This document shows, piece by piece, positions 33,234-56,159 of a DNA stretch of 64,000 nt. The DNA is taken from assembly GCA_963920635.1 (NCBI GenBank), contig OY987298.1, forward strand, positions 82,407,454 to 82,471,453, written 5' to 3'. The notes below the pieces were generated by a model. That model ran no database searches. It was not told the origin of the DNA and saw nothing but the letters and a program-made list of their open reading frames with translations. Origin of the DNA: Pseudeuparius sepicola. Taxonomy: Eukaryota > Arthropoda > Insecta > Coleoptera > Anthribidae. The position numbers and the translations under genes are program-made. How positions within the stretch are numbered: position 1 is the stretch's first letter; each line of letters starts with the position of its first letter.

Positions 33234-33443
33234 ATTAAAAAATTACCAAATCTCCAAAAAAATTAAACGACAAAAATTGGGCAGAATTGACGACAACAAA
33301 TATTCGAGCAAATATTTTAGGCAAGATAATTGAATCAACAAAAAAATAAAATAGTCCAAATTTTCAAAGTTCAAAAAGTCAAAGCTACTTTAATTTTATT
33401 TAACCACAATAGAGCAAGCTTCGACAAAAAATTAACCTCAAGG

Positions 33444-33463
33444 CCCCAAGTTGGGTCACGCCA
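33444..33463 (-). other. Primer-binding site of the gypsy element
   Basis: Directly beside the LTR on the minus strand lies TGGCGTGACCCAACTTGGGG. The position and the TGGCG start are typical of a tRNA 3'-end primer site in gypsy elements. The matching tRNA was not determined. The same site recurs in both further tandem units. Confidence 0.65.
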
Positions 33464-33469
33464 AAAATG

Positions 33470-35540
33470 TATAACCAAAATGGTTATGTTTGGGCGCCAG
33501 AAGCTTGAACTATTTAGTGGTTAAATAAAAAGCACATTTTTCTAATTACAATATATTCACAATTTGGAATTGTACATTTAGTGGTTCACACAAAGTACAG
33601 TAGGTCAACTGAGTAGTTAAACTTGATACTTACAATTTATCATTTGTTAAAAAAACTTGGAAAAGGTTAAAGGTTACAATATAACATTGGAGATGTTCGT
33701 GAGCTTAAAAGCAAAACACAAGTAGCACGAAAGGTTCACGTGAGCATTTAAAGTCTTGTTTACGAGCACTTCGAAAATTTGGACGACAGTTCTACAGACT
33801 ACCTTAAAGCCTTCTCAGATTAAAGCTACGTAGAGGCCACCTTCGCTCCAAACTCCTTGTTCGTGGATTAGGACCTCGGCTAGGCCTCGAGACTCGAGCG
33901 GGTCGTGGGATGTCCGAGCTGGTGCCGGAAGGTGTGCTCCCTACTCTAAGCCGGTTGTAACGTTGGTGTGCTGGTACTCAGTCCGTCCCTGTCTCGGTTA
34001 CGTGCTTCGCTCACGTACCGGAGTGCATGTAACAGAAAACACAACAAACAGTCTCCGAAAACCAGCAGTCGATGTTTCGACGCTTTTACAATTACTAGTT
34101 AAATTTATTACGTAAAAAGGGGTTAAAAAAAAATTGAATCTGTACAGATTTTGCAATTACATGTGGCAAACCTTAATTAACAACCCCAAGATAAATTAAA
34201 GCATGTAACCTTGAATTATAGAACCCTGAAATTGGCTGTGAAATAGATTAAAAATGACTATAAAAAACGATCAATTATCTCGACTACACTCGACTCATAA
34301 ATTTACTATACAATATTTACAAAATAAAAGGTAACATTAATAAAATACAAAAGTTCGTTTGGCGACTTCCCCAGTCGATATCAAAACACCAGACGAAAAA
34401 TATTACAGCTACAAAAGCTAGATAACCAAAAAAAGGAACCGATGTAAAGTTTACGTGCCTTGGTCAACTTAAGGGTTCGTTTTCCTAAATCTGTGCTAAT
34501 AAACAAAATTTACGACCAAAATATGTGGCCACAGCTCACTGCGTGCAGCCCACAGAGAAAAGGGGGAACAGGCCTAGGTGAGAGTAGCTCAGGAGTTATC
34601 AAAATGACGTTATTAATAAAAGTTATTAAAAATTGAGCATATACTCACCCAGACTGTGTTCCCAGGGGTCCTCTCTGTAGTTGCACCTGCAGCGGGTCGC
34701 TGTTGAAACGTTGAAACTCGATAAATGTGTGAAAATCGTGCACTTCCACAGCCTAATGCCACGTGCTCGCAAACACATGTAAAAAAACAGAAAACCTCAA
34801 TTAGCACAGCGAAGATAAAGGCACACGCTACACAAAACCACTTAAGTCGACCAAATTAGGCCTGAACAGAGACTTTCACAAGGAAATTTCCATACAGAAA
34901 ATTCAAGGCCGGATTTCACCCACGCGACTCTTTACCACGAATGTTCGAAAGGGAAGTCGGGCGATTCTTGTCGCCGCTTCTTTTTATAACCTCGCCTGCC
35001 AAAATGATGACGATTTCCGTTTCCAGAACGAATTGGAAGGTTTGGGGAGTCAAATCCATAAAAAAAAAACAATCGGAAGTCGCCATTTAGGACGACGATG
35101 GCAGGCCAGGGTGTCAACTGTCAATTCTGTGAATTCTGTCAAACTTTCATCACTGATATTAGACTAGTAGAAACGTCGGAAACAAAGAGTGACGTTAGTA
35201 CACGGAACAACCGTGGCGAGCGAGTCAATCGTAAACTGAATAAAGTGAATATTATCTCTATAATTAAAGTCAGAGAGTGATTACAACAATGTAACTGTTC
35301 TAGTAATACATACCTTCAATCGATGAATAAAATTTAAACATTTTTGCAACCGCACATACCCTTTAATAAACAATTTGTTTGGTAACAACAAGGTAGGCAA
35401 CTTATTAGGCATCCGCTTGTATAGGTGGTTGCAGATAGCAGGGCAACATTTTTTAACATCGGTAAGTGTATACGGGGGGTGACGAATTAATATGAATTAA
35501 ATAATGCATTTAAACGCTGTAACGGAAATTAGATAAAATT
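33470..35540 (-). repeat. 5' LTR of the gypsy element
   Basis: Runs from TATAACCAAAATGG to TTAGATAAAATT on the plus strand; copies also at 37316-39386 and 41162-43232 within the tandem units. The minus strand is the transcribed strand. No clear TATA box/initiator pair was identified. A length near 2.07 kb is long for gypsy LTRs. If TG..CA ends apply, the LTR would extend to 33468 on one side, and on the other the possible start TGTAACG lies about 8 bases beyond 35540. Confidence 0.85.
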
Positions 35541-35836
35541 TTCGTTACAATTTTGAACTTCATTATAAAACAGATGGCAGCCTGACTAAAATCATATCAA
35601 AACGCATATTTTTCGAATAAATGAAAAAAAAATTTTTCCACATGAAGAACCCAGGATGACTCTCTGATTCATACCTTATTATTGTGAGAATATACGCAAC
35701 ATAATGCCCTTTGAAAGGCATATTGAGTAAAATCACATCCAAACATCTGCCACTATCTCCCGGTCTATTAGATGGAGCACATTTATTAAAACATCCTGTA
35801 CTATAAAGGCAACATAACAAACAATATAAAATAATA

Positions 35837-36140
35837 ATGTTGCATCAATATTACAGGAGTATATGCCTTCAATATTTCAAAGTATATAACCTGCAATAAA
35901 ATTTATTATATAGTATCAACGTTATACTGTTACATGTATGAAATGTCACATTGTAATATTTCTACATGTAACGTCAATGTTGCATGTTACATTCAACCTA
36001 ACAGTGTTACATTAATGCAAAACAGATAATCTATAACATAGCTGTAACATATATATTATTGGAACTAGTTAAGTAATGTAACAGTATAAAATTGCTATAT
36101 AACTGTTTTGTTACTGTAATGATTCAATGTTTAGTGGGTA
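35837..36140. repeat. TGTAACA-rich degenerate block
   Basis: Dense in TGTAAC / GTTACA words on both strands (for example TTACATGTATGAAATG, ATGTTACATTCAACC, AGTGTTACATTAATGC). It ends near 36134-36150 with ATGTTTAGTGGGTAGTTTA, which recurs inverted near 17656. Present in all three tandem units. It may be a decayed small transposon or satellite-like block; no coding. Confidence 0.5.
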
Positions 36141-36684
36141 GTTTATATAAAATTTATTACCTAACTAGTTACGTAAAGTTCATTACGTCAGTTCACTACA
36201 GTCAGTAGGTATATCAGAATATCAATACAAACAATTTCTTTTTTTATCAATATTGAATATCGATTCTTGAAAATTGTTCGATATTATCGAAATTACTGCC
36301 CGGATGGTTATTTTTCTTTAAAATTCAATATTGCCCGGCCCTAGTCAGTATTGCTATTTAAATTAAACTTTTGTCATCTTTAATTTCAATATTTCTTCAA
36401 AATTAGGAAATATTATTTTGCATAACTCGCTTGAAGTTGCGTAAACCTGCTTCGTTTATATCTCAAATATACCACTCGTTACGTAAAATCACATTTTTCC
36501 TAACTGCTTACGTAAATAGCTAGTTCATAAACTTTTAACTGTTTATAGTACCTATATTAAGAAAACATTGAAACAAAACTAGAGCAATGTCACCATGTTT
36601 GCATATTTCCCCAAAAAAGTTTTGTTATCTCCAAAAAAGGCGTGTTATCCTGCATCTTTTAGACTTAATTCTTATATTTTTCAG

Positions 36685-36932
36685 ATCCAACAAGAAAAAG
36701 AGCTACGATGGGGCTTAAGCAAACAACGTTGAATTATTTACTTAAAAAAAATGAAAGAGCCCATGAAATCCTTATCAGAGAGTTGGAGATACAAGAAAAG
36801 AAATTCGAATTAGATAATTGGGAAAGGAAAAAAAGGGTAGAAATTGAGGAGAAAAAAATAAGTGTCGAACTAGAAATGTTCAAAAACCAACAAAAATTAA
36901 TGGAAGCTTTAATTAAAAAAATCGAGTCATAG
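36685..36932 (+). CDS. Coiled-coil last exon, Myb/SANT-like gene (present three times)
   Basis: After the acceptor TTTTTCAG at 36684 the exon reads PTRKRATMGLKQTTLNYLL, then a strongly charged helix (ELEIQEKKFELDNWERKKR... to KKIES and stop). This is the coiled-coil tail common in Myb/SANT-like proteins of Harbinger type. The first two bases complete a codon, so the upstream exon must end with one base left over, and the exon ending at 17578 does exactly that. Identical copies lie at 40531-40778 and 44377-44624. An internal ATG (36708) allows a shorter frame, but the splice acceptor argues for an exon. Whether any copy is spliced to 17578 is inference. Confidence 0.55.
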
Positions 36933-36972
36933 AATGGTGTCACTTGTTATATAGTATATTTGCTAACAAGTG

Positions 36973-37127
36973 CGGAAAGTGCCACTTTTCCGCTTGCGAT
37001 TGCAGTTGGCTGAACGACGCATAGCGGAGTTCAGCCAAGCAATCGAGTGTGGAAAAGACACTTTCGGCAAGAGTTTTTTCTACAAGCGTGCGGAAAAGTA
37101 TACTTTTCCGCACGCTTGTAGAAAAAA
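36973..37127. repeat. Hairpin cluster including a perfect 54-bp palindrome
   Basis: 37074-37127 is a perfect palindrome without spacer (27-bp arms, centre GGAAAAGTATACTTTTCC). Just before it, TTGGCTGAAC (37006-37015) pairs with GTTCAGCCAA (37029-37038), extended outward by CGATTGC/GCAATCG. AGTGCGGAAAGTGCCACTTTTCCGC-type blocks begin the cluster. The same cluster follows each coiled-coil exon (palindromes also at 40920-40973 and 44766-44819). On RNA it would form very stable hairpins downstream of the stop codon. Confidence 0.9.
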
Positions 37128-40100
37128 TACGTTTTATTTTTGTTTAAGTTCCTAATAAGGGAGTCTAGTAGCATCTTAGTTGGATTTCGTTTTTAAATAG
37201 TCCAAATTTTCAAAGTTCAAAAAGTCAAAGCTACTTTAATTTTATTTAACCACAATAGAGCAAGCTTCGACAAAAAATTAACCTCAAGGCCCCAAGTTGG
37301 GTCACGCCAAAAATGTATAACCAAAATGGTTATGTTTGGGCGCCAGAAGCTTGAACTATTTAGTGGTTAAATAAAAAGCACATTTTTCTAATTACAATAT
37401 ATTCACAATTTGGAATTGTACATTTAGTGGTTCACACAAAGTACAGTAGGTCAACTGAGTAGTTAAACTTGATACTTACAATTTATCATTTGTTAAAAAA
37501 ACTTGGAAAAGGTTAAAGGTTACAATATAACATTGGAGATGTTCGTGAGCTTAAAAGCAAAACACAAGTAGCACGAAAGGTTCACGTGAGCATTTAAAGT
37601 CTTGTTTACGAGCACTTCGAAAATTTGGACGACAGTTCTACAGACTACCTTAAAGCCTTCTCAGATTAAAGCTACGTAGAGGCCACCTTCGCTCCAAACT
37701 CCTTGTTCGTGGATTAGGACCTCGGCTAGGCCTCGAGACTCGAGCGGGTCGTGGGATGTCCGAGCTGGTGCCGGAAGGTGTGCTCCCTACTCTAAGCCGG
37801 TTGTAACGTTGGTGTGCTGGTACTCAGTCCGTCCCTGTCTTGGTTACGTGCTTCGCTCACGTACCGGAGTGCATGTAACAGAAAACACAACAAACAGTCT
37901 CCGAAAACCAGCAGTCGATGTTTCGACGCTTTTACAATTACTAGTTAAATTTATTACGTAAAAAGGGGTTAAAAAAAAATTGAATCTGTACAGATTTTGC
38001 AATTACATGTGGCAAACCTTAATTAACAACCCCAAGATAAATTAAAGCATGTAACCTTGAATTATAGAACCCTGAAATTGGCTGTGAAATAGATTAAAAA
38101 TGACTATAAAAAACGATCAATTATCTCGACTACACTCGACTCATAAATTTACTATACAATATTTACAAAATAAAAGGTAACATTAATAAAATACAAAAGT
38201 TCGTTTGGCGACTTCCCCAGTCGATATCAAAACACCAGACGAAAAATATTACAGCTACAAAAGCTAGATAACCAAAAAAAGGAACCGATGTAAAGTTTAC
38301 GTGCCTTGGTCAACTTAAGGGTTCGTTTTCCTAAATCTGTGCTAATAAACAAAATTTACGACCAAAATATGTGGCCACAGCTCACTGCGTGCAGCCCACA
38401 GAGAAAAGGGGGAACAGGCCTAGGTGAGAGTAGCTCAGGAGTTATCAAAATGACGTTATTAATAAAAGTTATTAAAAATTGAGCATATACTCACCCAGAC
38501 TGTGTTCCCAGGGGTCCTCTCTGTAGTTGCACCTGCAGCGGGTCGCTGTTGAAACGTTGAAACTCGATAAATGTGTGAAAATCGTGCACTTCCACAGCCT
38601 AATGCCACGTGCTCGCAAACACATGTAAAAAAACAGAAAACCTCAATTAGCACAGCGAAGATAAAGGCACACGCTACACAAAACCACTTAAGTCGACCAA
38701 ATTAGGCCTGAACAGAGACTTTCACAAGGAAATTTCCATACAGAAAATTCAAGGCCGGATTTCACCCACGCGACTCTTTACCACGAATGTTCGAAAGGGA
38801 AGTCGGGCGATTCTTGTCGCCGCTTCTTTTTATAACCTCGCCTGCCAAAATGATGACGATTTCCGTTTCCAGAACGAATTGGAAGGTTTGGGGAGTCAAA
38901 TCCATAAAAAAAAAACAATCGGAAGTCGCCATTTAGGACGACGATGGCAGGCCAGGGTGTCAACTGTCAATTCTGTGAATTCTGTCAAACTTTCATCACT
39001 GATATTAGACTAGTAGAAACGTCGGAAACAAAGAGTGACGTTAGTACACGGAACAACCGTGGCGAGCGAGTCAATCGTAAACTGAATAAAGTGAATATTA
39101 TCTCTATAATTAAAGTCAGAGAGTGATTACAACAATGTAACTGTTCTAGTAATACATACCTTCAATCGATGAATAAAATTTAAACATTTTTGCAACCGCA
39201 CATACCCTTTAATAAACAATTTGTTTGGTAACAACAAGGTAGGCAACTTATTAGGCATCCGCTTGTATAGGTGGTTGCAGATAGCAGGGCAACATTTTTT
39301 AAAATCGGTAAGTGTATACGGGGGGTGACGAATTAATATGAATTAAATAATGCATTTAAACGCTGTAACGGAAATTAGATAAAATTTTCGTTACAATTTT
39401 GAACTTCATTATAAAACAGATGGCAGCCTGACTAAAATCATATCAAAACGCATATTTTTCGAATAAATGAAAAAAAAATTTTTCCACATGAAGAACCCAG
39501 GATGACTCTCTGATTCATACCTTATTATTGTGAGAATATACGCAACATAATGCCCTTTGAAAGGCATATTGAGTAAAATCACATCCAAACATCTGCCACT
39601 ATCTCCCGGTCTATTAGATGGAGCACATTTATTAAAACATCCTGTACTATAAAGGCAACATAACAAACAATATAAAATAATAATGTTGCATCAATATTAC
39701 AGGAGTATATGCCTTCAATATTTCAAAGTATATAACCTGCAATAAAATTTATTATATAGTATCAACGTTATACTGTTACATGTATGAAATGTCACATTGT
39801 AATATTTCTACATGTAACGTCAATGTTGCATGTTACATTCAACCTAACAGTGTTACATTAATGCAAAACAGATAATCTATAACATAGCTGTAACATATAT
39901 ATTATTGGAACTAGTTAAGTAATGTAACAGTATAAAATTGCTATATAACTGTTTTGTTACTGTAATGATTCAATGTTTAGTGGGTAGTTTATATAAAATT
40001 TATTACCTAACTAGTTACGTAAAGTTCATTACGTCAGTTCACTACAGTCAGTAGGTATATCAGAATATCAATACAAACAATTTCTTTTTTTATCAATATT

Positions 40101-43100
40101 GAATATCGATTCTTGAAAATTGTTCGATATTATCGAAATTACTGCCCGGATGGTTATTTTTCTTTAAAATTCAATATTGCCCGGCCCTAGTCAGTATTGC
40201 TATTTAAATTAAACTTTTGTCATCTTTAATTTCAATATTTCTTCAAAATTAGGAAATATTATTTTGCATAACTCGCTTGAAGTTGCGTAAACCTGCTTCG
40301 TTTATATCTCAAATATACCACTCGTTACGTAAAATCACATTTTTCCTAACTGCTTACGTAAATAGCTAGTTCATAAACTTTTAACTGTTTATAGTACCTA
40401 TATTAAGAAAACATTGAAACAAAACTAGAGCAATGTCACCATGTTTGCATATTTCCCCAAAAAAGTTTTGTTATCTCCAAAAAAGGCGTGTTATCCTGCA
40501 TCTTTTAGACTTAATTCTTATATTTTTCAGATCCAACAAGAAAAAGAGCTACGATGGGGCTTAAGCAAACAACGTTGAATTATTTACTTAAAAAAAATGA
40601 AAGAGCCCATGAAATCCTTATCAGAGAGTTGGAGATACAAGAAAAGAAATTCGAATTAGATAATTGGGAAAGGAAAAAAAGGGTAGAAATTGAGGAGAAA
40701 AAAATAAGTGTCGAACTAGAAATGTTCAAAAACCAACAAAAATTAATGGAAGCTTTAATTAAAAAAATCGAGTCATAGAATGGTGTCACTTGTTATATAG
40801 TATATTTGCTAACAAGTGCGGAAAGTGCCACTTTTCCGCTTGCGATTGCAGTTGGCTGAACGACGCATAGCGGAGTTCAGCCAAGCAATCGAGTGTGGAA
40901 AAGACACTTTCGGCAAGAGTTTTTTCTACAAGCGTGCGGAAAAGTATACTTTTCCGCACGCTTGTAGAAAAAATACGTTTTATTTTTGTTTAAGTTCCTA
41001 ATAAGGGAGTCTAGTAGCATCTTAGTTGGATTTCGTTTTTAAATAGTCCAAATTTTCAAAGTTCAAAAAGTCAAAGCTACTTTAATTTTATTTAACCACA
41101 ATAGAGCAAGCTTCGACAAAAAATTAACCTCAAGGCCCCAAGTTGGGTCACGCCAAAAATGTATAACCAAAATGGTTATGTTTGGGCGCCAGAAGCTTGA
41201 ACTATTTAGTGGTTAAATAAAAAGCACATTTTTCTAATTACAATATATTCACAATTTGGAATTGTACATTTAGTGGTTCACACAAAGTACAGTAGGTCAA
41301 CTGAGTAGTTAAACTTGATACTTACAATTTATCATTTGTTAAAAAAACTTGGAAAAGGTTAAAGGTTACAATATAACATTGGAGATGTTCGTGAGCTTAA
41401 AAGCAAAACACAAGTAGCACGAAAGGTTCACGTGAGCATTTAAAGTCTTGTTTACGAGCACTTCGAAAATTTGGACGACAGTTCTACAGACTACCTTAAA
41501 GCCTTCTCAGATTAAAGCTACGTAGAGGCCACCTTCGCTCCAAACTCCTTGTTCGTGGATTAGGACCTCGGCTAGGCCTCGAGACTCGAGCGGGTCGTGG
41601 GATGTCCGAGCTGGTGCCGGAAGGTGTGCTCCCTACTCTAAGCCGGTTGTAACGTTGGTGTGCTGGTACTCAGTCCGTCCCTGTCTCGGTTACGTGCTTC
41701 GCTCACGTACCGGAGTGCATGTAACAGAAAACACAACAAACAGTCTCCGAAAACCAGCAGTCGATGTTTCGACGCTTTTACAATTACTAGTTAAATTTAT
41801 TACGTAAAAAGGGGTTAAAAAAAAATTGAATCTGTACAGATTTTGCAATTACATGTGGCAAACCTTAATTAACAACCCCAAGATAAATTAAAGCATGTAA
41901 CCTTGAATTATAGAACCCTGAAATTGGCTGTGAAATAGATTAAAAATGACTATAAAAAACGATCAATTATCTCGACTACACTCGACTCATAAATTTACTA
42001 TACAATATTTACAAAATAAAAGGTAACATTAATAAAATACAAAAGTTCGTTTGGCGACTTCCCCAGTCGATATCAAAACACCAGACGAAAAATATTACAG
42101 CTACAAAAGCTAGATAACCAAAAAAAGGAACCGATGTAAAGTTTACGTGCCTTGGTCAACTTAAGGGTTCGTTTTCCTAAATCTGTGCTAATAAACAAAA
42201 TTTACGACCAAAATATGTGGCCACAGCTCACTGCGTGCAGCCCACAGAGAAAAGGGGGAACAGGCCTAGGTGAGAGTAGCTCAGGAGTTATCAAAATGAC
42301 GTTATTAATAAAAGTTATTAAAAATTGAGCATATACTCACCCAGACTGTGTTCCCAGGGGTCCTCTCTGTAGTTGCACCTGCAGCGGGTCGCTGTTGAAA
42401 CGTTGAAACTCGATAAATGTGTGAAAATCGTGCACTTCCACAGCCTAATGCCACGTGCTCGCAAACACATGTAAAAAAACAGAAAACCTCAATTAGCACA
42501 GCGAAGATAAAGGCACACGCTACACAAAACCACTTAAGTCGACCAAATTAGGCCTGAACAGAGACTTTCACAAGGAAATTTCCATACAGAAAATTCAAGG
42601 CCGGATTTCACCCACGCGACTCTTTACCACGAATGTTCGAAAGGGAAGTCGGGCGATTCTTGTCGCCGCTTCTTTTTATAACCTCGCCTGCCAAAATGAT
42701 GACGATTTCCGTTTCCAGAACGAATTGGAAGGTTTGGGGAGTCAAATCCATAAAAAAAAAACAATCGGAAGTCGCCATTTAGGACGACGATGGCAGGCCA
42801 GGGTGTCAACTGTCAATTCTGTGAATTCTGTCAAACTTTCATCACTGATATTAGACTAGTAGAAACGTCGGAAACAAAGAGTGACGTTAGTACACGGAAC
42901 AACCGTGGCGAGCGAGTCAATCGTAAACTGAATAAAGTGAATATTATCTCTATAATTAAAGTCAGAGAGTGATTACAACAATGTAACTGTTCTAGTAATA
43001 CATACCTTCAATCGATGAATAAAATTTAAACATTTTTGCAACCGCACATACCCTTTAATAAACAATTTGTTTGGTAACAACAAGGTAGGCAACTTATTAG

Positions 43101-44886
43101 GCATCCGCTTGTATAGGTGGTTGCAGATAGCAGGGCAACATTTTTTAAAATCGGTAAGTGTATACGGGGGGTGACGAATTAATATGAATTAAATAATGCA
43201 TTTAAACGCTGTAACGGAAATTAGATAAAATTTTCGTTACAATTTTGAACTTCATTATAAAACAGATGGAAGCCTGACTAAAATCATATCAAAACGCATA
43301 TTTTTCGAATAAATGAAAAAAAAATTTTTCCACATGAAGAACCCAGGACGACTCTCTGATTCATACCTTATTATTGTGAGAATATACGCAACATAATGCC
43401 CTTTGAAAGGCATATTGAGTAAAATCACATCCAAACATCTGCCACTATCTCCCGGTCTATTAGATGGAGCACATTTATTAAAACATCCTGTACTATAAAG
43501 GCAACATAACAAACAATATAAAATAATAATGTTGCATCAATATTACAGGAGTATATGCCTTCAATATTTCAAAGTATATAACCTGCAATAAAATTTATTA
43601 TATAGTATCAACGTTATACTGTTACATGTATGAAATGTCACATTGTAATATTTCTACATGTAACGTCAATGTTGCATGTTACATTCAACCTAACAGTGTT
43701 ACATTAATGCAAAACAGATAATCTATAACATAGCTGTAACATATATATTATTGGAACTAGTTAAGTAATGTAACAGTATAAAATTGCTATATAACTGTTT
43801 TGTTACTGTAATGATTCAATGTTTAGTGGGTAGTTTATATAAAATTTATTACCTAACTAGTTACGTAAAGTTCATTACGTCAGTTCACTACAGTCAGTAG
43901 GTATATCAGAATATCAATACAAACAATTTCTTTTTTTATCAATATTGAATATCGATTCTTGAAAATTGTTCGATATTATCGAAATTACTGCCCGGATGGT
44001 TATTTTTCTTTAAAATTCAATATTGCCCGGCCCTAGTCAGTATTGCTATTTAAATTAAACTTTTGTCATCTTTAATTTCAATATTTCTTCAAAATTAGGA
44101 AATATTATTTTGCATAACTCGCTTGAAGTTGCGTAAACCTGCTTCGTTTATATCTCAAATATACCACTCGTTACGTAAAATCACATTTTTCCTAACTGCT
44201 TACGTAAATAGCTAGTTCATAAACTTTTAACTGTTTATAGTACCTATATTAAGAAAACATTGAAACAAAACTAGAGCAATGTCACCATGTTTGCATATTT
44301 CCCCAAAAAAGTTTTGTTATCTCCAAAAAAGGCGTGTTATCCTGCATCTTTTAGACTTAATTCTTATATTTTTCAGATCCAACAAGAAAAAGAGCTACGA
44401 TGGGGCTTAAGCAAACAACGTTGAATTATTTACTTAAAAAAAATGAAAGAGCCCATGAAATCCTTATCAGAGAGTTGGAGATACAAGAAAAGAAATTCGA
44501 ATTAGATAATTGGGAAAGGAAAAAAAGGGTAGAAATTGAGGAGAAAAAAATAAGTGTCGAACTAGAAATGTTCAAAAACCAACAAAAATTAATGGAAGCT
44601 TTAATTAAAAAAATCGAGTCATAGAATGGTGTCACTTGTTATATAGTATATTTGCTAACAAGTGCGGAAAGTGCCACTTTTCCGCTTGCGATTGCAGTTG
44701 GCTGAACGACGCATAGCGGAGTTCAGCCAAGCAATCGAGTGTGGAAAAGACACTTTCGGCAAGAGTTTTTTCTACAAGCGTGCGGAAAAGTATACTTTTC
44801 CGCACGCTTGTAGAAAAAATACGTTTTATTTTTGTTTAAGTTCCTAATAAGGGAGTCTAGTAGCATCTTAGTTGGATTTCGTTTTT

Positions 44887-49470: not shown

Positions 49471-50071
49471 GATACTCTTATTGTAACAAAACCAAAATTA
49501 AAATTCTACCTAATAAGGCACCTGCTCTAGCATACCTATAAAATATAAATAACAAATTTAGACATTAAAGTTTACATTAAATTTAAAATCTAATCTTCTA
49601 TTATTGAGACTGGAGAGTGACCCGACAATGTCTTTCCCTCGAAGCAACTCGCAAGGCCGACTTTTCGCGAAACCGAAATCCCAGGACCTAGACTTTCCAC
49701 AAAGTCGTCGTCTCGCGAGGCAGACTTCTGATATGACAACGTTGCATTGCATGGGTGACCTTAGGCTCTCCAATCTCAAGGATACTCAATGGATCCGGAA
49801 TCCCACGAGTTAGACTTTTCGCCAGGCCGACTCTAGGGACATTTCGAAATCTCTGGCAACATCGCATATGCCACGTACATTCAGAGGAATCGGTCTGTTC
49901 GTTGATTGAAGAAGGGGAAGATATCCTCCCTTAGGGTGGCATGCGAATATGATCCTTATGGTCTGTCTGTCACATTCCCACTTGTTACTAAATGTTTCTG
50001 TCTCGTTCTCTTACATTTCACCGACACGCGTCCGTACGGTGGCGCCAAATTCCGAAACCACCATTCGAGTC

Positions 50072-50102
50072 GGTCGATGGAGAAAGGAATCTTCAATCAA
50101 CG
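50072..50102 (+). repeat. Diverged copy of the short insertion motif
   Basis: GGTCGATGGAG...CAATCAACGG with flanks TTCGAGT / TTCGGGC that match at five of seven positions. A nearby CCATCGACG (50122-50130) is the inverse of the left end. A further weak copy, CCGATGGAGGAAGG...CAACG, lies at 52649-52673 without a clear flanking repeat. Confidence 0.45.
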
Positions 50103-50644
50103 GTTCGGGCAAAAGGTCACTCCATCGACGACGGAAGAGCGCAGGAAACTACGCGGTCAGCGCACCGCCACCTATGGACAAGGCCATACAACTGTCGTAT
50201 CGACCCCAGCGCTTAGGCATCAGGCATCGTCCGACGCGACGACGTCCAGCTGTTTTTGTTTTTGATCTGTATCTGTTCCTCGTTTTCCTCGTTTACTTAT
50301 TTCCACTTATATTATTGTTACTGGGTAATCTGTGATTGTTATTACGTGTATTTGGTGGATACAGTAGTGTGCAGAGGACCAGTGGTGTTCTAGTCCGATA
50401 ATTAGTGTGTGCCTATCAAAAACACATAGACAAACCCAAAGAGAGGTTTGGCTATGCAAAAACATTTCATGTTTTGAGCCATCAGATAAAGGATACCTAA
50501 ATACGGAGGTTAGGAAGTGAAAGTGTGTTTTGTTGTATACAGAGACTTGCCATCAAGGCAAGTCTCTGGTTGTATGTATAATATCAAAATGGGTGTTTTC
50601 TTGTGTTTTCTAAGCCATGCCCGAGAAGTGTTGTGTCCCAAATT

Positions 50645-50672
50645 CGTCGATGAAGGAACGAATTAATCGACG
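50645..50672 (+). mobile_element. 28-bp insertion with inverted ends, 8-bp duplication CCCAAATT
   Basis: Begins CGTCGATG and ends AATCGACG, so the terminal CGTCGAT/ATCGACG are perfect inverts. It lies between CCCAAATT (50637-50644) and CCCAAATT (50673-50680). Taking out the insert and one repeat joins the first THAP cysteines as CCVPNC. Insert plus repeat is 36 bases, so the frame is kept. Confidence 0.75.
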
Positions 50673-50909
50673 CCCAAATTGCCTAACCTAACCGAGCCAA
50701 AGCCAAAAGTGTCCGTTTTTGCCTTTCCTAAGGATCCAGTTTTGAGGGCAAAATGGGTGCAGGCCATAAAAAGGGCTGACTTTGTAGTCAAGAAACATTC
50801 TAAGGTAAGTTATATGTTACATTTTTATATATTTTTCATAAAGCTTCGGGTCATTGTAGGTCTGTGAACACTTTCAACACAAGACATTGAAAGGGAGACT
50901 ACGTGTGTT

Positions 50910-50931
50910 CGTCGATGGTCCTCAATCAACG
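50910..50931 (+). mobile_element. 22-bp insertion of the same type, 7-bp duplication GTGTGTT
   Basis: CGTCGATGG...AATCAACG between GTGTGTT (50903-50909) and GTGTGTT (50932-50938), inside THAP exon 2. Ends differ from perfect inversion by one base. Confidence 0.7.
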
Positions 50932-51261
50932 GTGTGTTGTAGAATCGACTGGTGAAACTTTACGTGCACCTTTAAAAATTCCACGTTTAGCTAAAGGTTT
51001 AAAATTTTCATGGCTAGTTAATTTCATTATATTTTTACAAAATATACTTACTTTTTAGGTGCAATACCTTGTAAGTTACCAGGTTGCCCAAGTTATTTGT
51101 CCAAATCGAGCACGAGTAGTCGTAGGGAAGGTCCCCAATAAAAATAAACAAAAAATTGAACTTGGACAGGTTGAAAAAGCCGCAGCCGAAAGCGTTGTGA
51201 GTTGTGAAGCTTAGAAGTCTGCAAAATCGTATTCAAACATTGAGGAAGCGTATTCAAAAAT

Positions 51262-51741
51262 GGTAATTATGGAGCATAGTGTATGCACCGCCCGATTTTC
51301 TTGAAATTTTGGCTACCCCCCTATTTTCGAGGTCCCTGAACACGAATCTGACCTCAGTGTTTTGAGGTCGGACATAGTTTCCGAGAAAATGAATTTTCAA
51401 ATTTCCTTTTAACGCCCCACTTTTTCACGGTAATATTTGGTTATAATCGAGATGAATTTAGCTCAAATTGATCACCACCTTATTTTGCGCCTTCTGCAGC
51501 ATAGGGTGGTGATCAGTTTAAGCTGCGTACACTAAAAATTTATCTGGATTATAACCACAAATGTCGCCGTGAAAAATGGGGTGTCGGGTGTCAAAAGGAA
51601 ATTTGAAAATTCATTTTCTCGGAAACTACGTCCGGCCTCAAAAAACTGAGGTTAGATTCTTGGTCAGGGACCTCGAAAATAGGTGGGTAGCGAAAATTTC
51701 AAGAAAATCGGGCGGTGCATACACTACGTTCAATAATTACC
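51262..51741. mobile_element. Complete foldback element, 480 bp
   Basis: Left arm GGTAATTAT...GTGTATGCACCGCCCGAT and right arm ATCGGGCGGTGCATACAC...AATAATTACC mirror each other over ~200 bases. The inner hairpin near 51463-51525 pairs GATCACCACC with GGTGGTGATC. It lies 120 bp beyond the THAP gene's last readable codon. Non-coding; the 65-codon frame at 51576 is a by-product. Confidence 0.75.
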
Positions 51742-51849
51742 TAAAAAATTTGTTATATTGCCTAGTGGGATAGTCGCTGGTTGAAGGCGAAAGGAAGCGA
51801 AGGAAGGGTCACATGTAGAGTAGTCACTGAAATGTTTATTCTCGTAATA

Positions 51850-52304
51850 ATTTTTTTGTTGTGATATTTTTATTGTTGAATTATCATTTATTAAATAACT
51901 TAAATTGTTGCTCTATTAAAATATTTTTGTGTTCCACAAATTAGTTGCTAAGTTATGTTTGAAATTGTAGTGGTGTTTTACCTGGACACAAAAAAACGAC
52001 AAACTTTGCAGAAGTTTCAGTTATTAAGTGTTTTTAAGATGCTAGTTGAACGTAAATAAAAATCGTTGGTATCGTACTGTCATGCTTGAAGATGTGCCTC
52101 AACATGCATAGCTAATATTAATATTATCTATTATACAGTGAATAAAAAATGCGAAAGTGTGATTTTTCTTCTTCTTTTGAGTAGGTGGCTGTGAATTCAT
52201 ATTTGACATTTTCACAAGCACCAACTTTTATCAAGAATAATTTGTTTTGAGAAACTTCAAATAAAGAAAATTCCCATTTGTGTCCAACTTTCTGTCAGAC
52301 ACTG
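51850..52304. mobile_element. Half copy of the 20607 foldback family
   Basis: Matches one arm of 20607-21513 (for example GATGCTAGTTGAACGT, GTGCCTCAACATGC-like, and the end CAACTTTCTGTCAGACACTG before TA at 52305-52306). The other arm is missing, so it is a truncated relic. Confidence 0.7.
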
Positions 52305-52305
52305 T

Positions 52306-53338
52306 ATACATGGTGTAACTGAACTGATGGTCAAAAATGAAACCAAGTATTCTTGGAGTCAAAATAAGGACACTTCTTCATATATTTTTTTCTTCTACGG
52401 GCCTTAATTTTTTTATACAAAGCATAGAAGTTTAGAGAAAAATACACGTATTTTTTAGTATCTCTAGAATTATACGAGATAGTTTCTTCAAACTTGGCGT
52501 GTCACATGATCGGATGAGCCGTCAAACTTAAGGTTGAAATGAAGCTTCTGAGGATCACAGTTGCGGAGATACAGGGTGTTATTAGAATTTATTACTTCAG
52601 AAAAATGTTTAACAAAAAGTATCTCTTAGTATTTTTTCATATTCGCAGCCGATGGAGGAAGGGAACAACGACGTATCTGTTCTCCAAAGTTCTACATCAA
52701 CGCTTTGATACCTTTAATCCTTGTTTATAATAGGTATATAAACAAAGTTTATATCGTCGATTCTCAAACAACGGAATATACCTATAATATTATCTTCATG
52801 TTTTGTTATTCGATTATCTATGTGATATAGGTACTGAAGTAGCATACCTAGTAAAGCATATAGTTTATTATACACAATATTTCATAAGCATAAGTATTAA
52901 CACTGACATACCTAAGCATAAAAAATATGATGTCTAGCTAAATTTATATAGTTGTCATTCATACAGAAAATTTGGTTTAGACGTCGATGGAAGATTCAAT
53001 CAACGGTTTACAGCATAAATAATATAACAAAACTTTAACGAAAAAATTAAAACCGACTTAAAAAATTTGCCCGTATGCACATTTCAACTAAAATTTTAGA
53101 AATATTTTTCTCTTTCTAAATTGAGTTACCTTTGGATTTGGTGACAGTCAAGGCAAAGAATTTACATCTATTTAGATATGAATACATCATATCCTACATA
53201 CATCATAACCAGGGCCCCCATGGGTTGGTCCACCCTGTACTTAAAACTTATAGTTTTTTTTAAATGTTTGTTTCATACTTTACTTTTTGTAATATTTTTT
53301 ATAAATTTTATATAACTGATCAACTTATTTTTTATATA
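52306..53338. other. AT-rich interval, no gene
   Basis: Contains the 24-bp insertion at 52982 and a CACCCTGTA end at 53230-53238, probably the surviving edge of another TA-flanked element. No frame recognised. Confidence 0.4.
52982..53005 (+). mobile_element. 24-bp insertion of the same type
   Basis: CGTCGATGG...CAATCAACG between GTTTAGA (left) and GTTTACA (right), a 7-bp repeat with one mismatch. Surroundings are unrelated to the other copies. Confidence 0.6.
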
Positions 53339-54413
53339 CAGGATGATTATTTTAGAACTATACCACCGCGATTTTCTCACTTATTTTGCGCCCTACAATA
53401 AAAAATCGTGAAGAAACAAAAATGTGGCAATTTTGGACAGCTAAGTGGTGCTGCAAAAGAAATCGGCAGCCATAGCCAACTTGACGCGCAATATAAAAAA
53501 TACCTCAAATTGAGCAAAACAATTTAATAGCCCTAGCATATTTATTTTAAGAGATAGAGGAAAACTATCATATTGAAAATTGATGACACTAAGAAGCTTT
53601 ATGCAACTGGGTACTCAGATAGTTTCAGAAAATTACACAGGGTGTTCGGCTCTCTTGAGGCTATGCATTTTTTGTTTATTTCTTATTAAGCAATTTTCTC
53701 GGTTATTTTAGGCCGCACAGAAAATAGATAAGAAAATAAAATATGGCAATTTTGGCCAGCCAGGTAACGTTAAAAAAGAAATGGGCCTCCATGCCTAATT
53801 TTTCGCGCTGTGCTAAAAAAACTTCAAATCGACAAAAATGTTCATGCCCTCAAGAGAGCCGAAGACCCTATGTAATTTGTTAAAACCCAATTAAAAGTTA
53901 TCACCTGGTACCAAATTTTGGAAAGATGGGCCTACCTACTTTGTTTTTCTCACTCTTTCCTTTTTCTAACGCGCTGAAGTGGCTTCTAAATACAAGGTAT
54001 CGAAAAATTTTATGAGAAAAAGTTGTTTAGAATTAAAACTTATTGCCCTGTACCAAATTTTGAGACAATCAGCCTACTTATTTTTTTCATTTTTTCTTTA
54101 GCGCCTTAGAAAAAAAAGTGGGAAAACAAAGTAGGCCGATCTTCCCAAAATTTGGTACCCTGGGGTAATTTTAATTGGCAACAACTTTTCTTAATGAAAT
54201 TTTTTGTTATCTTTAAAGGAAAAGGCACTTCACCTACAATGAAAATAAATAAATGGTCGCTGTCGACGCCATCTTGATTTTTCAAAAACGAAAATATGCT
54301 AAAAATTAGTTTCCAGTCATTAGTCAAGCAAATCAGAACCACAAACAATCAAATTTAAATGCGATTTTTTTTTTCTTTTACACATATTGGCTCACTTATC
54401 CTGGGCCACCCTG
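53339..54413. repeat. Mosaic of direct and inverted repeats bounded by TACAGG and CACCCTGTA
   Basis: Two direct copies of a ~110-bp block lie near 53425-53535 and 53740-53850 (TGGCAATTTTGG.CAGC...). GGCTCTCTTGAGG near 53649 is inverted at CCTCAAGAGAGCC near 53848. TACCAAATTTTGG appears directly near 53917 and 54052 and inverted near 54145. It is likely a rearranged foldback element. An 80-codon frame on the minus strand has no domain. Confidence 0.5.
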
Positions 54414-54637
54414 TATATTGTAAACAGCCAGTATTTGTTTTTTTTTTAATTTATGTTCCTGTGGCTTTGTGTTAAATTTTATTTTTGTTATATTACTTGA
54501 TCACAAATTCTTTTTTGTTTCACTTGGGTGGTATTTATTGGTTAAAAGCATGAACTAGATCAATTCTAACAAAATCATAAGTTGATTAAACTACAAAACT
54601 TGACAGTTGCATATTATAGGTAAAAAATAGCTAGGTA

Positions 54638-55504
54638 CAGGGGCGGATGGGCTTTACCTAACCAGCCCGGGCATTTGTCTCCCAAGCGGCCCCTAAACAT
54701 CTCATTTGGCTTTAGATTTTTCTTTTCTTAATTATTATTATAATAACAATTTAAAAAAAACAATGTAGATAATGTAATTTTTTAATAAAACAAAATATAC
54801 ATGTTTTATGAAAACATAAATAAAATCATAACTCTCGTAAAACAAATAAAACTTTTTTCTCTAAATATAAAGATATAAAAATAACAAAACATTCAGAAGC
54901 CTAGAAGGACCACACCGTTATTTTATTTTTATTGAATTCGAAATTCCAACTTTTAAAGTCTAAGGCCAACTTTGAAGTCAAAATTCCGACTTTATAAAGT
55001 CGAAATTCCGACTTTTAACTCGAAATTTCGACTTTAAAATTCGAAATCCGACTTTGAACTCGAAATTCCGACATTGAACTCGAAGTTTCGACTTTATGAA
55101 CTTCCAACTTTCAAAGCCGAAGTTCAAAGTCAAAATTTTGAGTTCAAAATCGGCATTTCGACTTCAAAGTCGGACTGCGACTTTAAAAGTCGAAATTTCG
55201 AGTTCAGTAAAAATAAAATAATGGTGTGGCCCTTCTACGTTTCCGTAAAATACGTAGAACAAAAAATAACAAAACAAAAATAATTAATTATGGCCAGTTG
55301 CACCGTCCTATCCTAAATTAACTACCTACTTACAACAATTATTGTAACAATGATTGCCTTTTGTTTTGTCAAGTAGTTAAGACTGTCTTACAATTTAAGA
55401 TGCGATGGACGATGAGCCTTCGAGCCTGCGGCCCTCCGGGGCCCTTCGAATGACCGGCCCACCGGACATTTGACATTTTGTCCCGGTGGTCCCATCCGCC
55501 CCTG
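54638..55504. mobile_element. Non-autonomous hAT-like element
   Basis: Ends CAGGGGCGGATGGG and CCCATCCGCCCCTG are inverted, and the element lies between two GCTAGGTA copies (54630-54637, 55505-55512). An 8-bp duplication and CAGGGG-type ends are hAT hallmarks. No transposase; 867 bp long. Its middle is the minisatellite below. Confidence 0.85.
54935..55210. repeat. Minisatellite of CGAAATTCCGACTTT-like units inside the hAT-like element
   Basis: About fifteen variants of a 17-20 bp unit (AACTCGAAATTCCGACTTT) run in one direction to about 55095. They then give way to the inverse orientation (AAAGTCGAAATTTCGAGTT), so the tract is partly palindromic. Confidence 0.8.
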
Positions 55505-55578
55505 GCTAGGTACCTAACTACTGTCCCGGTTTTCGTCAGCCAGGAGTTGGTCACCTTGTTGTATATGAATATTATAAC

Positions 55579-55606
55579 CGTCGATGGAGGAAGGAATCAA
55601 TCAACG
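55579..55606 (+). mobile_element. 28-bp insertion of the same type, 7-bp duplication TTATAAC
   Basis: CGTCGATGGAGG...CAATCAACG between TTATAAC (55572-55578) and TTATAAC (55607-55613). Confidence 0.7.
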
Positions 55607-55849
55607 TTATAACTCCATTATAAAAAGATTATTTTAAAAAGACTCGAGAAATTTGTCATTAACAATTAATAACGTTACTCGCTACTTAAAAAAAACCGCC
55701 TCCATAGGCAAAGAGGGGGGCGGGGCCGCGGCCGGGCGACTCGAATCGAACGCTGGAATACAAAATCTAAAATATACTTCCAGCCGTCGATCGATGGCGA
55801 TGACTCATTCGTACCAGCACAAAAAACGCAAACAACCAAGGTCAAATCA

Positions 55850-56095
55850 ACAGATTTGGCAAGCCGCGAAGCGCGCCATCTGCCGAACAAAAGTTCGTCT
55901 TGGGAAGCCGCATTACAAGTGCGCAGTGTGCCATCTACCGGACAGAAGCCTCGTTTCCACCTCAACGCCGAGACGTAATCCGAGGATGGTGCAAGTCCGC
56001 CATCTACCGAACAACCGTGTCGGACTGGGAAGCCTCGTTTCCCCCACCGCGCCGAGAAGTATTCGACGGTGGCTCCATTTTCTTCCGAAGAGTAT
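55850..56095. repeat. GC-rich direct repeats with CGCCATCT cores
   Basis: A block containing GCCATCTACCG, AGCCTCGTTTC and CGCCGAGA occurs twice (about 55930-55990 and 56000-56075), with a shorter third copy near 55878-55912. It is followed by a CCTTCCTCCATCGA motif at 56136-56149. Overlapping frames on both strands have no domain. GCCAT cores can be bound by Pho/YY1-type proteins, but this is speculative. Confidence 0.5.
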
Positions 56096-56159
56096 TGAAT
56101 CAGTCGGTATTTCGCATTAGGAAACTAATCTTTACCTTCCTCCATCGAAGGTCTGTTCA

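What the first reader, a model, noticed from the sequence alone, without database searches (positions are those of the whole stretch)
50637..55613. Ultra-short (22-28 bp) transposon-like insertions with inverted ends and 7-8 bp target duplications
Four sites (50645-50672, 50910-50931, 52982-53005, 55579-55606) carry CGTCGATG(G) at one end and AATC(A/G)ACG at the other, with only 5-12 variable bases between. Each is flanked by a different 7-8 bp direct repeat (CCCAAATT, GTGTGTT, GTTTA(G/C)A, TTATAAC), and outside the repeats the sites share nothing. That is the signature of insertion with target duplication. The inserts are smaller than any miniature element I know of, and two diverged copies (50072, 52649) suggest repeated activity over time. 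They may be extreme deletion derivatives of a DNA transposon making 7-8 bp duplications (hAT-, P- or Merlin-like), stuck terminal-only products of transposition, or a new kind of micro-insertion. I saw no convincing copies elsewhere in the window.
Basis: partly seen in the sequence, partly recalled or inferred. Interest (0 to 1): 0.88.

Follow-up and report, generated by a model that had tools for sequence, protein, structure and literature searches.

The report
Excision scars of a P-like transposon
The tiny 22-28 base inserts are most likely not miniature jumping genes but scars left where copies of a larger P-element-like transposon jumped in and later cut themselves out; this genome holds over two thousand such marks, which makes it a natural record of how such elements leave.

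Summary
All four inserts are at the stated coordinates with 7-8 bp flanking duplications (three exact, one 6 of 7). The window lies in a 769-Mb assembly in which CGTCGATG-N(0-14)-AATCRACG occurs 2,445 times against 3 for the reversed control. Sixty fetched sites fall into 39 events: 31 have exact 7- or 8-bp duplications, 5 have one mismatch, 3 have none. Where sister copies were on hand, empty sites lack insert plus one duplication.

The inserts do not look like mobile micro-elements. In 31 of 39 events they are a prefix of one end of a larger transposon joined to a suffix of its other end with no extra base. At most 18 nt (one ambiguous 19) come from either end, rarely more than 31 in all. 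The parent family is in the window: 49900-56150, related terminal repeats, 7-bp duplication GTCTGTT, THAP exon inside. All four inserts sit inside it. P-type transposase pieces lie in related copies. A private insert of another copy is an empty site in the window.

Verdict: excision footprints of a P-superfamily transposon that inserted into its own copies. The mechanism is known; the size of the natural archive is unusual.

The parts
49893..49899 (.). left target duplication of the host element, GTCTGTT
   Evidence: same 7 bases at 56151-56157
49900..56150 (+). copy of a P-superfamily-like transposon (about 6.25 kb, non-autonomous, with other transposons nested in it) that contains all the reported inserts
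   Evidence: left end CGTTGATTGAAGAAGGGGAAGAT and right end (minus strand) CTTCGATGGAGGAAGGTAAAGAT; 496 such ends in the genome, control 0; 12 of 12 true end pairs tested elsewhere carry an exact 7-bp duplication
49900..49922 (+). left terminal repeat of the host element
56128..56150 (-). right terminal repeat of the host element (one base differs from the family: CTT for CGT)
56151..56157 (.). right target duplication of the host element, GTCTGTT
50072..50102 (+). footprint-like join E (31 bp), no recognisable duplication
50617..50806 (+). broken THAP exon 1 of the transposase (splice end read by eye); footprint A adds 36 bp between the codons for CCVPN and C; a further frame shift follows
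   Evidence: PF05485 E 1.3e-5 on 50682-50804; frames
50637..50680 (+). footprint A: insert 50645-50672 with 8-bp duplication CCCAAATT on each side
   Evidence: same site with a less decayed insert in L100 and L113
50860..51214 (+). broken exons 2 and 3 of the transposase N-terminus (VCEHFQ..., AIPCKLPGCPSYLSK...), limits approximate and read by eye
   Evidence: comparable pieces in relative L127
50903..50938 (+). footprint B: insert 50910-50931 with 7-bp duplication GTGTGTT
   Evidence: 9+13 nt of the two ends; also filled in L100
52647..52673 (+). doubtful decayed footprint F
   Evidence: 14/17 to the left part; no clear duplication
52975..53012 (+). footprint C: insert 52982-53005 with duplication GTTTAGA/GTTTACA
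   Evidence: 13+11 nt
55572..55613 (+). footprint D: insert 55579-55606 with 7-bp duplication TTATAAC
   Evidence: 18+10 nt (same letters as its 28-bp rows)
55734..55780 (+). empty site corresponding to a private footprint found in another copy of the same element (L071, G000:C1:13634621)

Best explanation
The inserts are excision footprints. A P-superfamily cut-and-paste transposon (ends CGTCGATGGAGGAAGGA... and CGTTGATTGARGAAGGGG..., 7-bp target duplication, target motif about GTWWWAC) inserted at each site. Its transposase later removed it with a long staggered cut that left up to 17-18 nt of each end on the flanking DNA. End-joining then trimmed and ligated these tails, leaving [duplication][left-end prefix][right-end suffix][duplication]. 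Shown on the samples examined: insertion with duplication, composition from the two ends, the length limit, and the duplication length and target motif shared with full-length copies. Inferred: that transposase excision followed by end-joining made the joins, and that the stagger is 17-18 nt as in the fly P element. In this window the targets were inside an older copy of the same family, so several footprints cluster in 6 kb and are inherited by its descendants.
For: Genome-wide pattern count 2,445 against a control of 3. 31 of 39 distinct events have exact 7-8 bp duplications and 5 more have one mismatch (best-kept member of each repeat group); swapped flanks give 0 exact and 27 one-mismatch in 1,560. 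Empty paralogous sites for five events lack insert plus one duplication: L038 vs L047 20+7, L053 vs L050 26+7, L067 vs several 23+8, L069 vs L031 18+7, the repeat of L035 vs L067 28+7. Full-length parents exist: 496 ends (control 0), and 12 of 12 true pairs tested have the exact 7-bp duplication. Of the 39 events, 24 are prefix + suffix with 0 nt between, 7 share 1-2 nt and 8 have extra bases. Left part: 18 nt in 8 events, 19 in one (ambiguous), none longer. Right part: 18 nt in one, none longer. With gaps of 15-44 there are 328 matches (control 7); 89 of the 100 listed are exactly 31 bp. Target motif in typed lists: T at position 2 in 23/26 footprints and 13/13 full-length copies, A at position 6 in 20/26 and 11/13. 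A footprint private to one copy (L071, duplication CTGGAAT) has 17 nt of that subfamily's own right end (GGAAGGT); the site is empty in the window and in 13 other loci at 12 distinct places. P-type transposase: THAP in the window, PF12017 in sister copy L100, PF21787 and PF21788 in a related open copy. Published fly P{wa} junctions have the same anatomy (PMC2895639 tables).
Against: Three of 39 events show no duplication (L039, L052, L063), and E has none. 8 of 39 have bases matching neither end, in part perhaps old mutations. The two retained parts together rarely exceed 31 nt, whereas two full 17-18 nt tails would allow 34-36; unexplained. The same 28-bp join (18+10) recurs at sites with different duplications (window D, L035 group, L100 688), which also fits a mobile unit. 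All sampled short events come from the first 23 Mb of one contig. No intact transposase with exactly these ends was found: only 150 of 508 candidates were scored, and the one related open copy whose ends I looked for (L127) shows none of this family's ends in 9.9 kb.
Confidence: 0.92

Rival explanations
1. Ultra-short elements of 17-31 bp that are themselves moved by the transposase.
For: Identical 28-bp and 31-bp sequences occur many times, and the 28-bp one lies at sites with different duplications (window D, L035 group, L100 688).
Against: Sequences differ from site to site in the way that two trimmed ends would. Part of the identical ones are inherited copies in repeats (L035 group of 15 sites plus L037). 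P transposase also binds internal sites beyond the terminal repeats (PMC7776569, passages), which inserts this short cannot hold.
Confidence: 0.04
2. Extreme internal deletion derivatives made by interrupted gap repair copying a sister element, rather than simple joining of the cut tails.
For: The fly P{wa} assay shows that repair often starts by copying and ends by joining (PMC2895639, passages).
Against: Copying would often leave more than 18 nt of an end. Here 18 is the limit on either side in 38 of 39 events (one ambiguous 19). Among the longer-gap matches only 11 of 100 listed exceed 31 bp, several of them double footprints or likely chance matches.
Confidence: 0.06
3. Footprints or ends of another transposon superfamily with 7-8 bp duplications (hAT, Merlin, MULE).
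For: Duplication length alone would allow it.
Against: P-type transposase and THAP pieces lie between the ends. The ends lack the hAT CAG start, and long end remnants are not expected from hAT-type cuts (both recalled).
Confidence: 0.03
4. Internal repeats or pieces of one larger repeat, with flanking repeats by chance.
For: A-D travel together in many host copies.
Against: Empty sites at six events and unrelated flanks with duplications in 36 of 39 events.
Confidence: 0.01

Closest known systems
Drosophila melanogaster P element excision junctions (P{wa}, PMC2895639; passages and Tables 1-3 seen)
   Same: Target duplication on both sides, at most 17 nt of each end, often joined with few extra bases or short templated inserts.
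   Different: 8-bp duplication and CATGATG ends; laboratory-induced events, not a natural genomic archive.
Galileo (P superfamily; PMC4168063 and PMC2775673, passages seen)
   Same: THAP transposase, mostly 7-bp duplications with a few of 8, target consensus GTATTAC/GTAGTAC much like GTWWWAC here.
   Different: Galileo has very long terminal repeats; here the two ends of the window copy are alike for only about 23 bp (17 of 23 identical).
BuT5 27-bp footprint at a D. mojavensis inversion breakpoint (PMC3355041, passages seen)
   Same: 12 bp of one end plus 15 bp of the other, likened by its authors to an excision footprint.
   Different: 9-bp duplications, single case. That BuT5 is P-derived is recalled (the paper looked for is not held).
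Anopheles P elements and P-MITEs (PMC1562414, passages seen)
   Same: P family with THAP transposase and short derivatives that keep both ends.
   Different: 8-bp duplications, 27-31 bp terminal repeats; the derivatives have a central region and are true MITEs.

Membership tests
P superfamily of DNA transposons (parent element) | P-type transposase (THAP, HTH, RNase H with GTP-binding insertion) | tested here: met
   Family level only: THAP in the window copy (PF05485, 26.4 bits, cut-off 23.9), HTH in sister copy L100 (PF12017 E 3.8e-5, 24.4 bits, cut-off 23), PF21787 E 2.1e-15 and PF21788 E 7.3e-7 in a related open copy with other ends (PF12017 there 19.9 bits, below its cut-off). No catalytic part was recognised by eye in the window copy's open frames.
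P superfamily of DNA transposons (parent element) | 7-8 bp target duplication | tested here: met
   12 of 12 true end pairs exact 7 bp; footprints 27 of 39 exact 7 and 4 of 39 exact 8
P superfamily of DNA transposons (parent element) | Terminal inverted repeats | tested here: met
   Ends 17 of 23 identical in the window copy; 496 ends in the genome, control 0
P superfamily of DNA transposons (parent element) | 17-nt staggered cut at the transposon ends | tested here: inconclusive
   Footprint parts stop at 17-18 nt, as expected, but no cleavage was measured
P superfamily of DNA transposons (parent element) | Placement of the transposase in a P-family tree | not tested
   no tree was built
Galileo | 7-bp duplication with palindromic GTANTAC-like target | tested here: met
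   against PMC4168063
Galileo | Long terminal inverted repeats (hundreds of bp) | tested here: not met
   end similarity fades after about 23 bp in the window copy
P-type excision footprint (the inserts) | Duplication + at most 17-18 nt of each end + few or no extra bases, at a site that is empty in relatives | tested here: met
   empty sites shown for six events
MITE | Short mobile element with its own internal sequence, moved as a unit | tested here: not met
   no internal sequence of its own in 31 of 39 events; movement as a unit was not testable
hAT | Strict 8-bp duplication, CAG-type ends, hAT transposase | tested here: not met
   7-bp duplications and CGT ends; the definition is recalled

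The most novel reading that the evidence does not exclude
The family targets itself. In this lineage at least four independent insertions with duplications (A-D), plus join E, struck a roughly 4-kb own sequence and then left. Every one is in reverse orientation to its host copy, and A sits in the THAP exon between the first two zinc-ligand cysteines. Excision scars inside the transposon's own transposase gene would then be a built-in way to make non-autonomous copies and damp the family.
Probability: 0.25. Interest if true: 0.65.

Novelty: new member of a known kind. Interest (0 to 1): 0.45.

Why it matters
P-element excision scars are known mostly from laboratory flies (recalled). Here one genome carries 2,445 + 328 pattern matches, by rough, upward-biased extrapolation from the first 100 listed perhaps up to about a thousand separate events. 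From these, cut position, duplication length, target motif and repair outcome of a P-type transposase can be read without an experiment. It also warns that 20-30 bp 'micro-transposons' in genome scans may be footprints, and it offers a natural test of self-targeting.

Tried and rejected
Searching public collections for the motif gave nothing that looked related. The flanks of 13 viral-contig hits and 16 genome-contig hits were printed and read by eye: none showed a flanking duplication, and I took them for chance matches without further tests. Plasmids gave no match for 49800-50800. Rfam had no match in the window at gathering thresholds.

I first thought of a small element at 49900-50130 because CTCCATCGACG ends at 50130; its flanks do not match, and the better partner end is 56150. 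A blind scan for end pairs with 7-bp duplications gave 11 pairs against 0-4 in 10 shuffles. It missed the window's own element, whose ends match at 12 of 17 against a threshold of 13, so it is not used as evidence.

I expected the open P transposase copy at G000:C1:71774379 to be the autonomous partner. Its ends could not be matched to this family within 9.9 kb, so it is only a relative. One end pair (78/79) failed because it paired the wrong neighbour; 78/80 is the true pair. The counts typed were estimates and are replaced by the exact count. One search prints 40 events; L037 is visibly the same repeat as L035, so I count 39, as. The 48 rows are not all independent; one search repeats the count on the 39 events. 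No structure prediction, structure search, protein-homologue search or tree was run.
Full report
OBSERVATION. The four inserts are present exactly as described, with flanking duplications of 8/8 (A, 50645-50672), 7/7 (B, 50910-50931), 6/7 (C, 52982-53005) and 7/7 (D, 55579-55606). Random placements in this window give 7/7 abutting flanks at 2.0e-4 and at least 6/7 at 3.2e-3, so four in four is far beyond chance. All four lie on the + strand. A fifth relative, E at 50072-50102, has no duplication; F at 52647 is doubtful.

THE SETTING. The window looks eukaryotic and rich in transposons (gypsy-like open frames on the minus strand at 28.66-33.24 kb, read by eye). It lies in a 769,049,646-base assembly of 16 contigs at C1:82407454-82471453. 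It looks like an arthropod to me, which is a guess.

THE HOST ELEMENT. A scan with the two ends of the inserts found CGTTGATTGAAGAAGGGGAAGAT at 49900 and, on the minus strand, CTTCGATGGAGGAAGGTAAAGAT at 56150, each abutted by GTCTGTT. In the whole genome CGTYGATKGARGAAGGNNAAGAT occurs 496 times, reversed control 0. In the 100 places listed, left and right ends pair up at about 3-24 kb, mostly 5-8 kb. All 12 true pairs among the fetched loci carry an exact 7-bp duplication (a thirteenth pairing, 78/79, was a wrong neighbour). So 49900-56150 is one copy of a multi-copy family, and every reported insert lies inside it. In the 30 end loci a relaxed pattern found no footprint in the 1.5 kb outside the ends, against 42 inside; 40 of the 42 are inherited copies of B, D and E. 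The pattern does not match the window form of A.

TRANSPOSASE. Inside the element a broken THAP exon starts at 50617 (PF05485, E 1.3e-5). Footprint A adds 36 bp between the codons of CCVPN and C. The matching exon of a related copy reads CSVPNC with no insert. A sister copy with slightly different ends (L100, C1:89980858-89989479) keeps a 182-residue piece with the P-element HTH domain (PF12017, E 3.8e-5). Searching that piece in the own genome gave 56 matches, with 150 of 508 candidates scored. Six related places, 69-71% identical over the matched part, have open frames of 477-698 residues. The one scanned carries TNP-like RNase H and GTP-binding domains (PF21787, PF21788), but none of this family's ends was found in the 9.9 kb around it. 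The parent family is therefore placed in the P superfamily; no tree was built and no intact copy with exactly these ends was seen.

GENOME-WIDE INSERTS. CGTCGATGN(0-14)AATCRACG matches 2,445 times (1,288 + 1,157), reversed control 3. The tool lists the first 100 places, all in the first 23 Mb of contig 1. Of these, 24 lie in copies of the host element (judged by their letters and spacing), 16 in one 149-bp tandem array, and I fetched the other 60. They fall into 39 distinct events: 27 exact 7-bp duplications, 4 exact 8-bp (one is site A in another copy), 5 with one mismatch, 3 with none. For repeat groups the best-kept member was taken. Pairing the left flank of one event with the right flank of another gave 0 exact and 27 one-mismatch matches in 1,560. 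At about 0.4 events per listed place, an upward-biased extrapolation is about a thousand separate events.

EMPTY SITES. Where a paralogous flank was on hand, the copy without the insert lacks insert plus one duplication: L038 against L047 20+7, L053 against L050 26+7, L067 against several 23+8, L069 against L031 18+7, and the repeat of L035 against L067 28+7 (some alignments are of 65-80% identity, a few gaps differ by some bases, and a second copy in L038 has a longer gap). The other events had no empty relative among the loci held. The clearest case is a 29-bp footprint private to one copy of the host element (L071, C1:13634621, duplication CTGGAAT). The site is empty in the window at 55734-55780 and in 13 other loci at 12 distinct places, since L079 and L080 overlap.

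WHAT THE INSERTS ARE. Against the two transposon ends, 24 of the 39 events are a prefix of the right end followed directly by a suffix of the left end with 0 nt between, 7 share 1-2 nt, and 8 have extra or changed bases. The longest prefix is 18 nt (8 events; one ambiguous 19 that shares 2 nt with the suffix) and the longest suffix 18 nt (one event) (48 partly dependent rows gave the same picture). The gap limit of 14 could have hidden longer ones, so I searched gaps of 15-44: 328 matches, control 7. Of the 100 listed, 89 are exactly 31 bp, many of them the same sequence (42 identical), and 11 are longer, several of these being two footprints side by side or likely chance. Thus each side stops at about 18 nt and the sum at about 31. 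P transposase is known to cut 17 nt inside its ends on one strand (PMC7776569, passages), and fly P{wa} excision junctions look the same: duplication, up to 17 nt of each end, few or no extra bases (PMC2895639, passages and tables). A natural 27-bp footprint of 12 + 15 nt has been reported for BuT5 in Drosophila mojavensis (PMC3355041, passages).

TARGET. In typed lists, duplications of footprints and of full-length copies share T at position 2 (23/26 and 13/13) and A at position 6 (20/26 and 11/13), roughly GTWWWAC. This resembles Galileo, a P-superfamily member with mostly 7-bp and a few 8-bp duplications and a GTATTAC consensus (PMC4168063, passages). The long terminal repeats of Galileo are not present.

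WHY THEY CLUSTER. Among the fetched loci A and E are filled in 16 of 16 left-end loci, B in 13 of 16 (in at least two of the other three the alignment stops before the site), D in 13 of 14 right-end loci; A, B and E are filled in L100 too. They are therefore ancestral to the family. C could be seen only in the window and, by its letters, at some places listed. Four duplications in about 4 kb of own sequence against roughly 3.6 matches per Mb genome-wide (2,773 in 769 Mb, copies included) points to self-targeting, perhaps by local hopping, which P elements show (PMC7776569, passages). All inserts seen inside the host element, and the three strict matches in L100 (two of which carry an exact duplication), are in reverse orientation to it. 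I have no tested explanation for that, nor for the 31-nt limit of the sum.

NOVELTY. The mechanism is known. What is unusual is the scale of the archive and the nesting in own copies. Search listings of the held open-licence library showed no genome-wide catalogue of P-superfamily footprints. A genome-wide study of rice DNA transposons that mentions excision footprints (PMC4423477, listing only) is the nearest in kind. The library lacks most subscription papers, and I read passages, not whole papers.

The composition count is now given for the 39 events, and confidence was lowered from 0.93 to 0.92 because 8 of 39 joins carry bases that match neither end.

Noticed in passing
window 54638-55504: hAT-like element nested in the P-like element: CAGGGGCGGATGGG...CCCATCCGCCCCTG ends with 8-bp duplication GCTAGGTA at 54630-54637 and 55505-55512.
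   Followed up: partly
window 33349-44886: Three tandem copies of a 3,846-bp unit, about 99.9% identical; pieces of the same unit lie at 23.9-26.7 kb.
   Followed up: no
L061 1454-1531 and L064 1501-1568: Two footprints side by side at one target: L061 has GTACAAG four times around two footprints in opposite orientation; L064 has CTTAGAC reused around a second, different join. Suggests repeated hits of the same spot.
   Followed up: partly
G000:C1:15767034-15769290: A tandem array with a 149-bp period in which each of 16 listed units carries the same 22-bp join, so a scar seems to have been amplified with its surroundings.
   Followed up: no
L100 600-740: Extra footprints just upstream of the transposase start codon in the sister copy, with GTTGTAG repeated three times.
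   Followed up: partly
L127 2989-3210 and 3371-3592: The THAP exon of a related, open P-type element is duplicated in tandem (same peptide twice).
   Followed up: no
genome-wide, lengths up to 31: Retained parts rarely sum to more than about 31 nt, with 18+13 and 13+18 both seen, although each side can reach 18. Unexplained.
   Followed up: partly
window 51262-51741: Inverted-repeat element (159-bp arms, 91% complementary) nested in the host element, with a relative at 49.2-49.5 kb.
   Followed up: no
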